Positions 31,004-49,339 of a DNA stretch of 64,000 nt are shown in pieces; the stretch's first letter is position 1, and each line of letters starts with the position of its first letter. The translations under genes and the position numbers were made by a program. The stretch is from Gerris lacustris (Eukaryota > Arthropoda > Insecta > Hemiptera > Gerridae). A model generated the notes under the pieces. It searched no databases and was not told the origin of the DNA. It worked only from the letters and a program-made list of their open reading frames with translations. The DNA lies in NCBI GenBank assembly GCA_951217055.1, contig OX578286.1, forward strand, positions 37,418,345 through 37,482,344. The letters are read 5' to 3'.

Positions 31004-31929
31004 ACCTAGAGCAGGGGTGCCCAACCTTTTTTTATCATGGGCCACATTGTCATCATTCAAAGAGAAGGCGGGCCGGGGGCCGGTGGTGTACCGGGGGGGC
31101 CCTCCCCCAGAAAATTTTATAATTTTTACCCTCATAAAACACTGTTTTATGCTTCCTAGAAGGTCAATTTTTCGTTTTGGTTTTAGCTGAAACACTATGT
31201 TAATAAAGTTTTTCTCTGTTACTAGCCTAGTTTTACTTTGCAGAAAGTAATACACTCAAATATATATTAAAATGATTGCAATCAACCACACAAGTATAAA
31301 AATACAACAAAAACAGTATGAATTACAAAAAAGTTAGTCGTTCATTTTACAAAGTTATTAATCAAAATATCAAGTTTGTATGTAACTTAGCTTCAGTGAG
31401 ATGGTTGAAACTGCTTTGTACTTGTACTTAAAATGTCTTTCCACTTAGGCTCAAACTTGGTTGTACCAATCATTAATAACGATTTTAAGTGTTCATCTGT
31501 GAGGGAAGACAGGAATTTTGATTTAATGTAATTCATTTTTGAAAATGTTTGTTCGCAAACATAGGTCGAGCCAAACGAGAGAACTTGGTACGAGCAAACA
31601 TTTTTAAGTTTTTGAAATCTTCATTGGGCAGGGCAAGGCGCTGTAGAATGGCAACAGATCGCCGTCCGTCTCCACCTCAAACAGACTTGTTTAGGCACTC
31701 GCTATAGTATCATTGGCTGCAACTGCTTTACTTATTTCAAGACGACCCATTCTCCAATGTTGCTGGGCAAAATCAGCTGGGCTGTTCGGCATTAGGAAAT
31801 TAATATATTATAGATTCTTTGAATGCTTGTAAATTAATCGTTTTTATGGCAACTCGGCGGGCCACATAAAATTGGCTCGCGGGCCGGACTCGGCCCGCGG
31901 GCCGTAGGTTGGGCACCCCTGACCTAGAG
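31004..31929. mobile_element. hAT-2b: complete non-autonomous hAT element
   Basis: Terminal repeats CAGGGGTGCCCAACC (31012 on) and GGTTGGGCACCCCTG (ending 31921) are exact inverses. They are flanked by a perfect 8-bp duplication ACCTAGAG (31004-31011 and 31922-31929). The length is 910 bp. It carries a broken transposase C-terminus on the minus strand. Its right terminal repeat is where the 3.93-kb duplicated segment starts. Confidence 0.93.
31393..31665 (-). pseudogene. hAT transposase C-terminal remnant in hAT-2b
   Basis: On the minus strand this is colinear with the frame at 29858-30142, down to the shared QPSH stop (31393-31395). A 1-base deletion near 31580 (TTCTCTCGTTTGG against TTCTCAGTGTTTGG) breaks the frame. 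It is clearly non-functional. Confidence 0.8.
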
Positions 31930-32454
31930 AGTTGAAATTTGGCAGAAAAATCATTCCTTACCTTAAGTGGTGTCGCCCGGAAAATCAAATTTTTTCGCCA
32001 TCTTGAACCCAGTTTGTTGAGTCAGCAAAAATTAAAAAAAACTTAATAAATCGAAAATGGTCCTGATCGAGTTGAAATTTGGCACGAATATGCCTCTCTG
32101 AATGACAAACAAGCCCACCAAATTTCATTTTGATATTGGCCGCCATTTTGAAGTTATCAATTTTTGATTTTTTAAACTCTGACGGTTAATAATACCGAAA
32201 GTATAAATAGGTTTTTGACGTATAGCATATCGTTGAAACCGGAAATAATTAAAAAACAAATATAAAAAACCCCGATGAAATTCCATTAATTAGTTTAAAA
32301 GTTATAAGCAAATATAACTATATATTAGTGCGATAATTTTGATGACGTCTGTCATCAATCTGTCAAAATACCACCAAACTTCAAATAATTAAATAAAATA
32401 TAGGTATTAAAAACAAGTTTTTTTTTAAGAATGATAATAAATCAGTTTGTTCAG

Positions 32455-32541
32455 AACGTTCACCCATCCAAGTACTGACCACGTCCAGTGCTGCTTCCTC
32501 CTGCTGCTTCGCAGCAGGAGAGGCCACTTTAATGGCCTCTG
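32455..32541 (-). repeat. 5S-rRNA-like repeat fragment, copy 2
   Basis: The reverse complement reads the GAGGCC/GGCCTC hairpin, a CCTGCTGCGAAGCAGCAGG hairpin and then GTCAGTACTTGGATGGGTGA. This is the same order as at 18751-18845. Confidence 0.55.
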
Positions 32542-32942
32542 AAGTGATTTTTTATGTCATTATTGTTTCCTTCGCCTTACTTTTATTTCACATCTTACTT
32601 CAATCCTGTCACCACAATATTTTTTTTCTTTGTTTCATTCATATTACATACATTCTTCGTTGTTGCATCCGAGTCTACCAAGATAGCGGAAGCATTTTTT
32701 GAAATATTTTTCCAACCTTTTTTATTTCATGCGAATTAATATCAACTTTTCGAAAATTATTTTTATGCATATATATTTCATATATTTCATAATTTTTTTC
32801 ATCTTGGTCAAAACCCAGTAACATTTTACAATTTTTTTTCTTTACTGTTCTATTTTAATGGTGTTTTATTTTGTCTGAATGTGTCGATCTGTCAATGGTG
32901 TCAATACATTATACGTATGTCATTGTGATTATATATGTATAT

Positions 32943-33119
32943 GATATATATATAAATATATATATATATATATATATATATATATATATATATATATATA
33001 TATATATATATATATAATATATATATATATATATATATATATATATATATAATATATATATATATATATATATATATATATATATATATGTGTGTGTGTG
33101 TGTGTGTGTGTGTGTGTGT
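32943..33119. repeat. (TA)n-(TG)n compound microsatellite
   Basis: TA runs interrupted by TAATA and then a TG run (33090-33118). The only length difference between the two flanking duplications lies here. The YIYI open frames are artefacts. Confidence 0.95.
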
Positions 33120-33170
33120 TAATACAATAAGTGAATACATTGAAAAATCAATTTTGCAAACAAACATATA

Positions 33171-33560
33171 ATTTGCTTCTGATTCTAATACAGTAGTGGC
33201 GGAAGTATTGTGTTCAAATTTTACGTTTTAGACCTTCCTGACGAAATTAAGTTTCGTGTCTGTCTGTCTGTCTGTTAGTTTCCACAAATCCTTGTCACAA
33301 GCATCAAGCATTAACGTTGACAATTTTTATCCGATTTTGATGCAATTTTCAAGGATTGTGCAGGTTATACCATATAATATGTTGCCGTATTAATGTCCTT
33401 TAAAATTGGATTGATAGTAGCCACTGCGCATGCGCAAACGTACTAAAATCCGCCAAACATCAATTTCTCAAAGGTCCAACAAACCGATTTTGCTCAGAAT
33501 TGGAGAATAGTTAGGGACTGGCCTACAGATGATCTTCCATTAATTTATTTATTGAGGAAG
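33171..33560 (+). repeat. F1-like diverged repeat
   Basis: 'gcttctgattc.aatacagtagtggcggaag' (a head hairpin of F1 style), a GTCTGTCTGTCTGTCTG tract and 'ttatccgattttgatgcaattttcaagg' give the general layout of F1 with low sequence similarity. Confidence 0.45.
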
Positions 33561-46436: not shown

Positions 46437-46618
46437 ATATATATATAAATATATATATATATATATATATATATATATATATATATATATATATATATAT
46501 ATATATATATATATATATAATATATATATATATATATATATATATATATATATATATATAATATATATATATATATATATATATATATGTGTGTGTGTGT
46601 GTGTGTGTGTGTGTGTGT
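46437..46618. repeat. (TA)n-(TG)n compound microsatellite, duplicate
   Basis: Counterpart of 32943-33119 but 6 bp longer net. The IYIY open frames are artefacts. Confidence 0.95.
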
Positions 46619-47977
46619 TAATACAATAAGTGAATACATTGAAAAATCAATTTTGCAAACAAACATATAATTTGCTTCTGATTCTAATACAGTAGTGGCG
46701 GAAGTATTGTGTTCAAATTTTACGTTTTAGACCTTCCTGACGAAATTAAGTTTCGTGTCTGTCTGTCTGTCTGTTAGTTTCCACAAATCCTTGTCACAAG
46801 CATCAAGCATTAACGTTGACAATTTTTATCCGATTTTGATGCAATTTTCAAGGATTGTGCAGGTTATACCATATAATATGTTGCCGTATTAATGTCCTTT
46901 AAAATTGGATTGATAGTAGCCACTGCGCATGCGCAAACGTACTAAAATCCGCCAAACATCAATTTCTCAAAGGTCCAACAAACCGATTTTGCTCAGAATT
47001 GGAGAATAGTTAGGGACTGGCCTACAGATGATCTTCCATTAATTTATTTATTGAGGAAGTTAAGTGCAACACTAATTAGCAGTCTATTTCCACTTGACAC
47101 ATTGGTTTACTTTATTATTTCGTTTATATATTACGCAACTACGTTTTCTAAAATGTTGGTTCTCGTCAAGAAATAAAAATTTGAGAGTTTAAACTAATTA
47201 ATTGTTTTAAAATTTATCAAGTTATTTAAATAATATTCTATATTATTATATATTTTACTTCATTTTCATTCAATGTCTCTTTTTAAGTTAAAAAGCAATG
47301 ACTAGTTAACAAATATCAATGTAAAAAAAATTATAATATAGCTTTCATAATAAAAAAAAGAGATAATTAGTAAATATAATAATATGTTAAAAATTAATAA
47401 TGTTATTCGTGTTTCTAAGAAATTATTACTATTGTTTTTCGTGAATTTCTAGTTTTGTTAAAATGACTGATAAGCGGTATCTAGCGGTCACTGAATGAAC
47501 TAATAGAAACATTAGTACTTAATGCAGCCGCTAGGTGCCGTTGTAGTCTATATCGCTATTATAATTTATAATGTAGGTATGGCGATGCCATAACGAGAAA
47601 CTAAAATTGTTTTTTTCATCTAATACCTATCCGTAAATTTTGATTTTGAGATTTTTTATGGATTAAACGTTGTGAGGTCTTAAAAGAGTCCAAAAAAAGT
47701 TGTTTATAAAAAAAATGTCAGACCGTAGTCTGAATTCTGTCATCTATGCAGACGCTTGAAGCCTATACTCATGATTGTACGTGTAATTACTTGGTCTTGT
47801 GCCTTCCATCTATTAGTTGTTTCGAGTTTTCTTGCTTACAATTAATTATTATTAAATATTTTATCAAAATTTACTGTAAAAATAATTCCCCTAGAGCGGG
47901 GCATTGAACCTGGCTTTTCATCGTCAACGTTAATAGCTGTTTTCAGATACTAAATTTTTCCTGGGAAAACGATATTT

Positions 47978-48574
47978 TACTACGTTTTTATTAGCTTGCT
48001 TTCTTGTTTGTTTGTTTGTTTGTCCGGTACAAATCTGGCAATCGATTTCTAACTAACTTCCCGAATAGCTAGACATTTGAAACTTTTAGCATAGCTCAGA
48101 ACACGATGACAATGCATTATTTTAATACTTTTAACCATCTTTTAGCAGAATTTAATTGGTTTTCAGCAAATTATGCTGTATATTAGTTCGGAAAAAATCC
48201 GCAAGTTATTTTATTTGTTTTGCCATATCCCATATTTACGCAATCTTCATTTTGACGGGTCTCAAATTTGTGATAGATAAACATTGAATGACAGCAAAAA
48301 CAGGAAATATCGATTTTATTATTTATCGATTATATTATTTATATTATTTCAAATATATCGATGGCACGCTTTAGATTTGGTGTTTCGGTACAAAGATTTG
48401 TCCTTTTATGGGTTTAAGATCAGCTCTCTATATATATACTAGATGGCTGTCATTTATGTGAAGTAAATAAATTCGGAACTATTTTTTTTTTCACTACCAT
48501 TATGTATTATATAACAATAACAATTATATTATCAACATTACTTACGATTTAACAGAAAATTTAAAAACGTAGTA
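47978..48574 (+). mobile_element. M1 MITE, duplicate copy
   Basis: Same sequence as 34479-35075, carried in the right flanking duplication. Confidence 0.7.
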
Positions 48575-48637
48575 TATAAAAAGTTCTTTTTATCTTGAAA
48601 TTATTTTATGTTTAGATTATTATTCATACGAACTGAA

Positions 48638-49163
48638 TTTTTACTTTCTCATACAAAGAAATTAAATTGTAATGACACTAAAATTCGATTTTGAGATTTT
48701 GATGGAGTCCAAAAAAAGGGGTTTTTAAAAAATTACAGTCTTGTCGTCTGCCTGTCTGTGCATACACCTGGAGCCTAAACTAAAAGGCATATTTTGACGA
48801 AATTTGGCATAATTGTTCAGAAAAATAATTTCCCCATGCGAAATAAATAAGATCCAAATTTGGGGGCGCTACCCCAAAAAATTCTAAAATGTAGTCCATT
48901 TAAATACGAATCTAACGATGTTAACCGTTTTCCCGGGAAAATAGCTTTAAACGCGAACGGAGGGAGGCTGGGTTCGATTCCCCGCCGAGAAGAAGTAATT
49001 TTTATGATACATTTTGACGAAGTGTTCAATAATAATTAAATGTACCCACAAAAACACGAAAACAAAAATAAAACGAAAAATAAAAGAAATCACTGGGCTA
49101 AAGTAATTATAAACTCGCATATATGAGAGAGTTTATCTGAGTTGTCTGGGACCAATTTTTTTA
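48638..49163 (+). mobile_element. F2 TTTTTA element, duplicate copy
   Basis: Same sequence as 35139-35664, including the B-box near 48971. Confidence 0.75.
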
Positions 49164-49339
49164 AATAAAAATTGTTGAACTATTATTAATGAGAAAAATA
49201 TCTTATTTTTCAGAGTTTTGGGGGGCAGCGCCCCAATATTTGAAGCCAAAATTAGTTTCTTGATTGCACCACAGGATATGATTTCACTGAACATGTACGC
49301 CAAATTTCATTGAAATCGTCCCATTAGTTTAGGCATATA

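What the first reader, a model, noticed from the sequence alone, without database searches (positions are those of the whole stretch)
31912..49339. Penelope array flanked by a 3.93-kb direct duplication: candidate giant target-site duplication
Seen in sequence: 31912-35840 and 45405-49339 are the same segment, differing as far as I can see only by 6 bp in a TA microsatellite. They sit immediately either side of the PLE array. The left copy joins an intact hAT (with its own 8-bp duplication) at its left edge, and the right copy begins 10 bases inside that hAT's terminal repeat. At its right edge the right copy runs into new sequence, while the left copy is cut by the array. That is the logic of a target-site duplication: both outer edges native, both inner edges new. 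Penelope-like elements are known for target duplications of variable length, but kilobase size would be exceptional. Inference: a very wide staggered break, or replication-based repair during insertion. Alternatives are a tandem duplication with the array at its joint, or an assembler joining two haplotypes.
Basis: partly seen in the sequence, partly recalled or inferred. Interest (0 to 1): 0.88.

Follow-up and report, generated by a model that had tools for sequence, protein, structure and literature searches.

The report
Penelope retroelement with 3.9-kb target duplication
A jumping gene of the Penelope kind appears to have duplicated almost four thousand bases of its landing site as it inserted, far more than the usual dozen, and three other copies in the same genome appear to show the same thing on a smaller scale.

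Summary
31912-35840 and 45405-49339 are one segment (D), differing only by 6 indel bases in a TA microsatellite. They flank a 2.9-unit tandem Penelope-like (PLE) array with identical units. The left joint is an ordinary PLE 3' joint; the right joint is a 5' truncation plus TTT. The right copy starts with the last 10 bp of the hAT beside the left copy. No ordinary short target duplication was found at the array edges.

I surveyed related insertions in the same 937-Mb assembly. Most resolved ones have about 9-21 bp duplications, but three other simple (non-inverted) insertions have 142, 159 and 523 bp. So 3.93 kb looks like the extreme of a heavy tail. Long ones: 4 of 13 resolved simple insertions, 0 of 19 resolved inverted ones (p = 0.02). 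In 3 of 4 long cases the far break lies at a hairpin (post hoc).

Best reading: one target-primed insertion whose second end was captured kilobases away, as reported for human LINE-1 in repair-deficient cells. No reads or empty allele were available, and a sister-chromatid bridge and a wide stagger leave the same scar.

The parts
31004..31011 (.). left 8-bp target duplication of the hAT (ACCTAGAG)
31012..31921 (.). 910-bp hAT-like element, terminal repeats CAGGGGTGCCCAACC / GGTTGGGCACCCCTG; left neighbour of D
   Evidence: sequence; the name hAT rests on terminal repeats and 8-bp duplication, recalled
31874..31903 (.). 13-bp GC hairpin (one T.G pair) inside the hAT, ending 8 nt outside the left edge of D; its 9-bp core is the only perfect stem of 9 bp or more with at least 80% GC and a 3-8 nt loop in the window
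31912..35840 (.). left copy of the duplicated segment D (3929 bp); starts with the last 10 bp of the hAT
35841..39147 (-). PLE unit 1 (3307 bp); 3' end of the element at 35841
36474..39062 (-). 862-aa ORF: reverse transcriptase (RVT_1) and C-terminal GIY-YIG endonuclease motif
39148..42454 (-). PLE unit 2, identical to unit 1
42455..45401 (-). PLE unit 3, 5'-truncated (2947 bp), identical over its length
45402..45404 (.). TTT at the 5' joint; matches neither the continuing unit nor the native flank exactly
45405..49339 (.). right copy of D (3935 bp)
49340..49486 (.). right flank; one full-length match in the genome search, plus an 82% match 3.7 kb away

Best explanation
One PLE insertion event made the duplication. 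The + strand was nicked after 35840, and the 3' end ...GGCATATA primed reverse transcription of PLE RNA (shown: the joint at unit position 1; priming inferred from it). Reverse transcription ran through 2.9 units of a multimeric or circular template (shown: identical units; template form inferred) and stopped inside unit 3. The cDNA end was joined, with TTT added, to a second DNA end lying 3.93 kb away, 10 bp inside the hAT terminal repeat (joint shown). Fill-in or replication then left D on both sides. The second end is inferred: either a distant nick or stalled nascent 3' end on the same molecule, or a break on the sister chromatid. It lies 8 nt from a 13-bp GC hairpin, which may have caused it. 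Related elements left 142-, 159- and 523-bp duplications elsewhere, so 3.93 kb is the extreme of a heavy-tailed distribution that arises, on this reading, when the usual second cut 11-18 bp away is not made or not used.
For: Topology and near-identity. 3' joint TA|ATTTAAAG as at several other loci (not at all of them: C4:30.3 follows TC). Full D seen only here among scored candidates. Other long duplications at simple PLE insertions: L028 523 bp exact, with the 516 bp searched found whole only at its two copies among 40 scored; L079 159 bp exact; L040 142 bp with 2 mismatches. Long (over 100 bp) 4 of 13 resolved simple insertions against 0 of 19 resolved inverted ones, Fisher p = 0.020, or 0.049 without the window. 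Null for short calls. Zero substitutions between the D copies fits a sister or the same molecule. Precedent: L1 duplications of kilobases in NER-deficient human cells (PMC5223499, passages).
Against: No reads, no empty allele and no relative: the pre-insertion state is inferred. Only four long cases exist; one (L079) lies in a dispersed repeat. Most resolved simple insertions (7 clear, 2 borderline) have ordinary short duplications, so a simple structure does not by itself give long ones. Two simple insertions show no duplication in flanks of 7-9 kb. The hairpin association is post hoc and fails at L028. Zero substitutions between copies would also fit two alleles if diversity were very low (chance 0.15 at 0.05%, 0.02 at 0.1%).
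Confidence: 0.8

Rival explanations
1. Assembly artefact: a heterozygous PLE insertion in one haplotype was joined to the empty haplotype, so D is counted twice.
For: The two copies differ only in a microsatellite, as two alleles might in a species of low diversity. No reads were available. The units are identical, so the unit count is uncertain.
Against: The right joint shows no overlap to misjoin on: PLE...AATCTT, TTT, GGCACC. There is no N in the window. It would need a contig edge exactly where a plausible 5' joint lies. Smaller cases of the same structure exist, one with copies that have diverged (L040, 2 mismatches).
Confidence: 0.09
2. Unequal exchange between two PLE insertions in the same orientation 3.9 kb apart on two homologs, giving D-PLE-D.
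For: It gives the same topology and leaves no trace in one assembly. Two insertions can be almost the same sequence: units of C8:45.40 and C6:21.04 differ at 1 site.
Against: It needs two insertions within 4 kb of a family with tens of loci found in 937 Mb. In the other 20 of 21 pairs of loci compared, units differ at 6 to 56 sites, yet all 9.56 kb here are one sequence. Two homologs should differ in D unless diversity is under about 0.1%.
Confidence: 0.05
3. An older tandem duplication of D into whose joint the PLE inserted later.
For: D-D tandems arise by many routes.
Against: The PLE would have to hit the joint to the base. Its own 10-20 bp duplication is missing: neither the 6-25 bases directly before the array recur in the 61 nt after it, nor the first 6-25 bases of right D in the 81 nt before it.
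Confidence: 0.04

Closest known systems
Penelope-like elements with GIY-YIG endonuclease (Drosophila Penelope; Pen families of Adineta vaga, PMC3846280, passages read)
   Same: One ORF with RT and GIY-YIG; partial tandems; inverted copy at one end; optional short 3' tail (31 bp there, about 36-45 bp here); short target duplications (8-10 bp in the passages, some insertions without; mostly 10-18 bp here)
   Different: A 3.93-kb duplication, and a series of 142, 159 and 523 bp; none so long in the passages I read
Human LINE-1 insertions with large target duplications in NER-deficient cells (PMC5223499, passages read)
   Same: Target-primed insertion, mostly at the usual first cut, with duplications from a few bp to several kb; the authors propose a distal unrelated second nick
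   Different: A different retroelement class in cultured human cells; here a PLE in the assembly of an unidentified organism, with 4 of 13 resolved simple insertions over 100 bp
LINE-1-mediated tandem duplication in tumours (PMC7058536, passages read)
   Same: One retroelement insert at the joint of a direct duplication; authors propose cDNA bridging sister chromatids
   Different: 22.6 Mb there, 3.9 kb here; somatic there

Membership tests
Penelope-like element (EN+ class) | single ORF with reverse transcriptase | tested here: met
   RVT_1, E 2.9e-9, residues 386-556; YIDD at 540
Penelope-like element (EN+ class) | C-terminal GIY-YIG endonuclease | tested here: met
   motif GTIYEIPCGQCSKSYIG at residue 742; Pfam GIY-YIG on the C-terminal piece E 0.0021, 18.8 bits, below the curated 22.6 and not reported for the whole ORF, so weak by profile
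Penelope-like element (EN+ class) | tandem or inverted partial copies with optional short 3' tail | tested here: met
   tandem units in the window; inverted arms and about 36-45 bp tail at many other copies
Penelope-like element (EN+ class) | hammerhead ribozyme near the unit junction (reported for some PLEs, recalled; not a defining feature) | tested here: inconclusive
   no hammerhead among Rfam matches up to E 5 in 38800-42600
Target-site duplication by retroelement insertion | outer edges native, inner edges element joints, one copy before insertion | tested here: inconclusive
   edges met; full D seen only here among 40 scored candidates; empty allele not available
Target-site duplication by retroelement insertion | 3' joint at the element's usual 3' end | tested here: met
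   window joint at unit position 1 after TA, as at several other loci

The most novel reading that the evidence does not exclude
PLE insertions that fail to get their normal second cut complete by capturing a far 3' end created at a hairpin-forming inverted repeat (stalled polymerase or structure-specific nuclease), so hairpins decide how much host DNA is duplicated. PLEs would then be a source of kilobase tandem duplications with predictable edges.
Probability: 0.3. Interest if true: 0.77.

Novelty: new variant of a known kind. Interest (0 to 1): 0.64.

Why it matters
How target-primed retroelements choose and make the second cut is, to my knowledge, still poorly understood. This genome offers a natural series (about 10 bp to 3.93 kb) from related elements with the same kind of endonuclease and with readable joints. 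It links duplication size to insertion form and, possibly, to hairpins at the far break. If right, PLEs can copy kilobases of host DNA in one step, enough for a regulatory region or small gene. It also gives a natural, presumably germline, parallel to LINE-1 behaviour that the papers I looked into report from cultured cells and tumours.

Tried and rejected
Rejected: 'simple insertions always have long duplications' (my own idea after the first survey): 7 simple insertions have clear 11-21 bp duplications and 2 have borderline ones. Rejected: D as a dispersed repeat: two inner stretches are repeats of about 630 bp, but the whole D appeared only twice, both here, among scored candidates. Disfavoured: PLE inserted at an old D-D joint. 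Hammerhead ribozyme not found. No PDB relative by sequence up to E 1. The telomere pattern (TTAGG)5 gave no match, so the organism stays unidentified. Protein database search was not possible. More loci for the hairpin test could not be obtained: two searches (queries window:39112-39260 and L012:1501-1720) did not complete.

Rows dropped before the count, out of 50 insertion loci looked at (19 classed simple incl. the window, 29 inverted, 2 of a third family not classed). Simple: 2 with no duplication (C9:39.16, C1:155.67) and 4 unresolvable because of N or microsatellite (C9:59.55, C9:64.62, C1:39.21, C1:146.15); at C9:59.55 and C9:64.62 the 5' side is hidden by N, so 'simple' is itself uncertain there. 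Inverted: 3 with none (C2:73.96, C10:3.82, C10:18.37; flanks of 1.2 kb or less), 6 unresolvable or not called (C11:22.12, C8:1.51, C1:110.33, C1:93.69, C1:31.84, C7:65.99), and C8:18.46, which I had scored as none by then but which later gave 12 bp. One search counted two simple loci (C9:9.91, scored 10; C24:1.72, scored 9) and one inverted locus (C11:62.66, 10 bp) whose calls are only borderline by the null; a few lengths entered are 1 bp longer than those. The loci at C10:18.98/19.16 and C11:8.35 were not examined.
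Full report
OBSERVATION. Self-comparison of the window finds 31909-35840 against 45402-49339 at 99.8% and a 3307-bp tandem PLE period at 100%. Base by base, 31912-35840 and 45405-49339 differ only by 6 indel bases inside the TA run. 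Outside the microsatellite about 3739 bp are without a substitution. The array is two full identical units plus 2947 bp of a third. The ORF lies on the minus strand, so the element's 3' end is at the left (35841). The hAT is a 910-bp element with an 8-bp duplication, and the right copy of D starts 10 bp inside its right terminal repeat.

WHERE IT IS. The window is G000:C10:37418345-37482344 of a 937-Mb, 69-contig assembly. The full D appears only at these two places among 40 scored candidates of 18616; two inner parts are dispersed repeats of about 630 bp. The sequence just right of D has one full-length match, itself, and an 82% match 3.7 kb away.

THE ELEMENT. The 862-aa ORF has RVT_1 (E 2.9e-9), YIDD at residue 540 and a GIY-YIG motif at 742 (Pfam GIY-YIG 18.8 bits on the C-terminal piece, under its cut-off). 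Tandem and inverted partial copies with an optional short tail at other loci match what is described for EN-containing Penelopes of Adineta vaga (PMC3846280, passages). In six other multi-piece insertions compared, tandem and inverted pieces are identical or nearly so: 0 or 1 difference per comparison, except C24 with 3 in 83 and 2 in 213. Units of different loci differ at 1 to 56 substituted sites per roughly 3300 over 21 pairs; the closest pair, C8:45.40 and C6:21.04, differs at 1. Each insertion therefore seems to have copied one template sequence; a circular or multimeric RNA would explain the tandems (inference). No hammerhead was found.

IS IT A TARGET DUPLICATION? The left inner edge, GGCATATA|ATTTAAAG, is an ordinary 3' joint: at several other loci the element also starts at unit position 1 after TA, though not at all (C4:30.3 follows TC). 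The right inner edge is a 5' truncation followed by TTT and then D. If the array had entered an older D-D joint, a 10-20 bp duplication should sit at its edges; none of 6-25 nt abutting them was found. If D had been duplicated after insertion, the right copy should lead into PLE again, unless an empty homolog was the template; it leads into flank without PLE. The insert and the duplication therefore look like one event (inference from anatomy).

SURVEY. Of 50 insertion loci looked at (27 others, 13, 9, and the window), 19 were classed simple (one-ended), 29 inverted (twin-primed form), and 2 belong to a third family and were not classed. Among simple ones, 4 have long direct repeats at both inner edges: window 3929 bp; L028 (C1:34.62) 523 bp exact; L079 (C1:32.34) 159 bp exact, with 8 nt of filler at one joint; L040 (C1:32.85) 142 bp with 2 mismatches and a few bases between repeat and element. 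Seven have clear short ones (11-21 bp), 2 borderline (10 bp), 2 none, 4 cannot be read. Among inverted ones, 19 have clear short ones (11-18 bp), 1 borderline, 3 none, 6 not readable or not called. The null from 1122 mismatched flank pairs gives 11 bp or more in 2.0% and 12 bp or more in 0.5%. With the lists as entered, long ones are 4 of 13 against 0 of 19 (p = 0.020), and 3 of 12 against 0 of 19 without the window (p = 0.049). Of the L028 repeat, the 516 bp searched were whole only at its own two copies among 40 scored; its first 91 bp are dispersed. The L079 repeat lies within a dispersed, apparently terminal-inverted repeat, so it is weaker.

THE FAR BREAK. In the window the 13-bp GC hairpin 31874-31903 ends 8 nt before D. 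Its 9-bp core is the only perfect stem of 9 bp or more with at least 80% GC and a 3-8 nt loop in 64 kb. Folding 120 nt around the far break gives z -2.8 (window), -2.2 (L079, hairpin ending at the break), -9.9 (L040, a long palindrome with the break inside it) and +0.7 (L028). Primary breaks give -1.5, +1.9, -0.9 and 0.0 in the same order. Of 500 random positions from the window and six flank loci 8.8% reach -2.23, so 3 of 4 has P about 0.0025. I formed this idea after seeing the sequences, so it is a lead and not a test.

MECHANISM. Shown: ordinary first joint, 5'-truncated second joint with TTT, duplicated D, heavy-tailed duplication lengths among related insertions. Inferred: when the endonuclease cuts both strands 11-18 nt apart, both ends can prime and an inverted, short-duplication insert results. 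When the second cut is not made or not used, the cDNA is joined to whatever end lies within reach, on the same molecule or the sister. The same scar follows from a 3.9-kb stagger, from a cDNA end taking over a stalled nascent strand, or from bridging sisters. Zero substitutions between the D copies argues against homologs unless diversity is under about 0.1%.

PRECEDENT. In NER-deficient human cells L1 duplications ranged to 5.3 kb with median 1495 bp by the authors' text (table rows list 5896 and 6765); they state that duplications over 100 bp never exceeded 10% of events in HeLa, found 3 of 9 over 100 bp in complemented cells, and propose a distal unrelated nick (PMC5223499, passages). In a tumour an L1 insert marks a 22.6-Mb tandem duplication, proposed to bridge sisters (PMC7058536, passages). 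I saw no report of kilobase duplications for PLEs in the titles and abstract beginnings listed (one search listed none); apart from the three papers named I opened none, and that library lacks most subscription papers.

VERDICT. Observation confirmed, interpretation supported at about 0.8. A new variant of a known kind. Reads and an empty allele are the missing proof.

Noticed in passing
35841-45401 and loci: Within each PLE insertion compared, tandem and inverted pieces are (nearly) identical while most loci differ, suggesting one template molecule per insertion, perhaps a circular RNA copied more than once round.
   Followed up: partly
L079:1277-1284: 8-nt filler ACAGTCAT between PLE and the right D copy is close to the reverse complement of the native bases beside the far break (ATGACTG).
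   Followed up: no
4130-5098: Remnant of another reverse transcriptase ORF (RVT_1, E 1.9e-11, YVDD) that looks like a different PLE family.
   Followed up: no
29737-30513 and 31006-31876: Two related hAT-like copies in inverted orientation about 0.5 kb apart next to the left edge of D (88-93% in self-BLAST).
   Followed up: no
G000:C10:18.98M and 19.16M: The same PLE pieces with the same internal interruption occur twice, 181 kb apart: a likely segmental duplication.
   Followed up: no
23304-24918: Large minisatellite of 82-bp period, about 20 copies.
   Followed up: no
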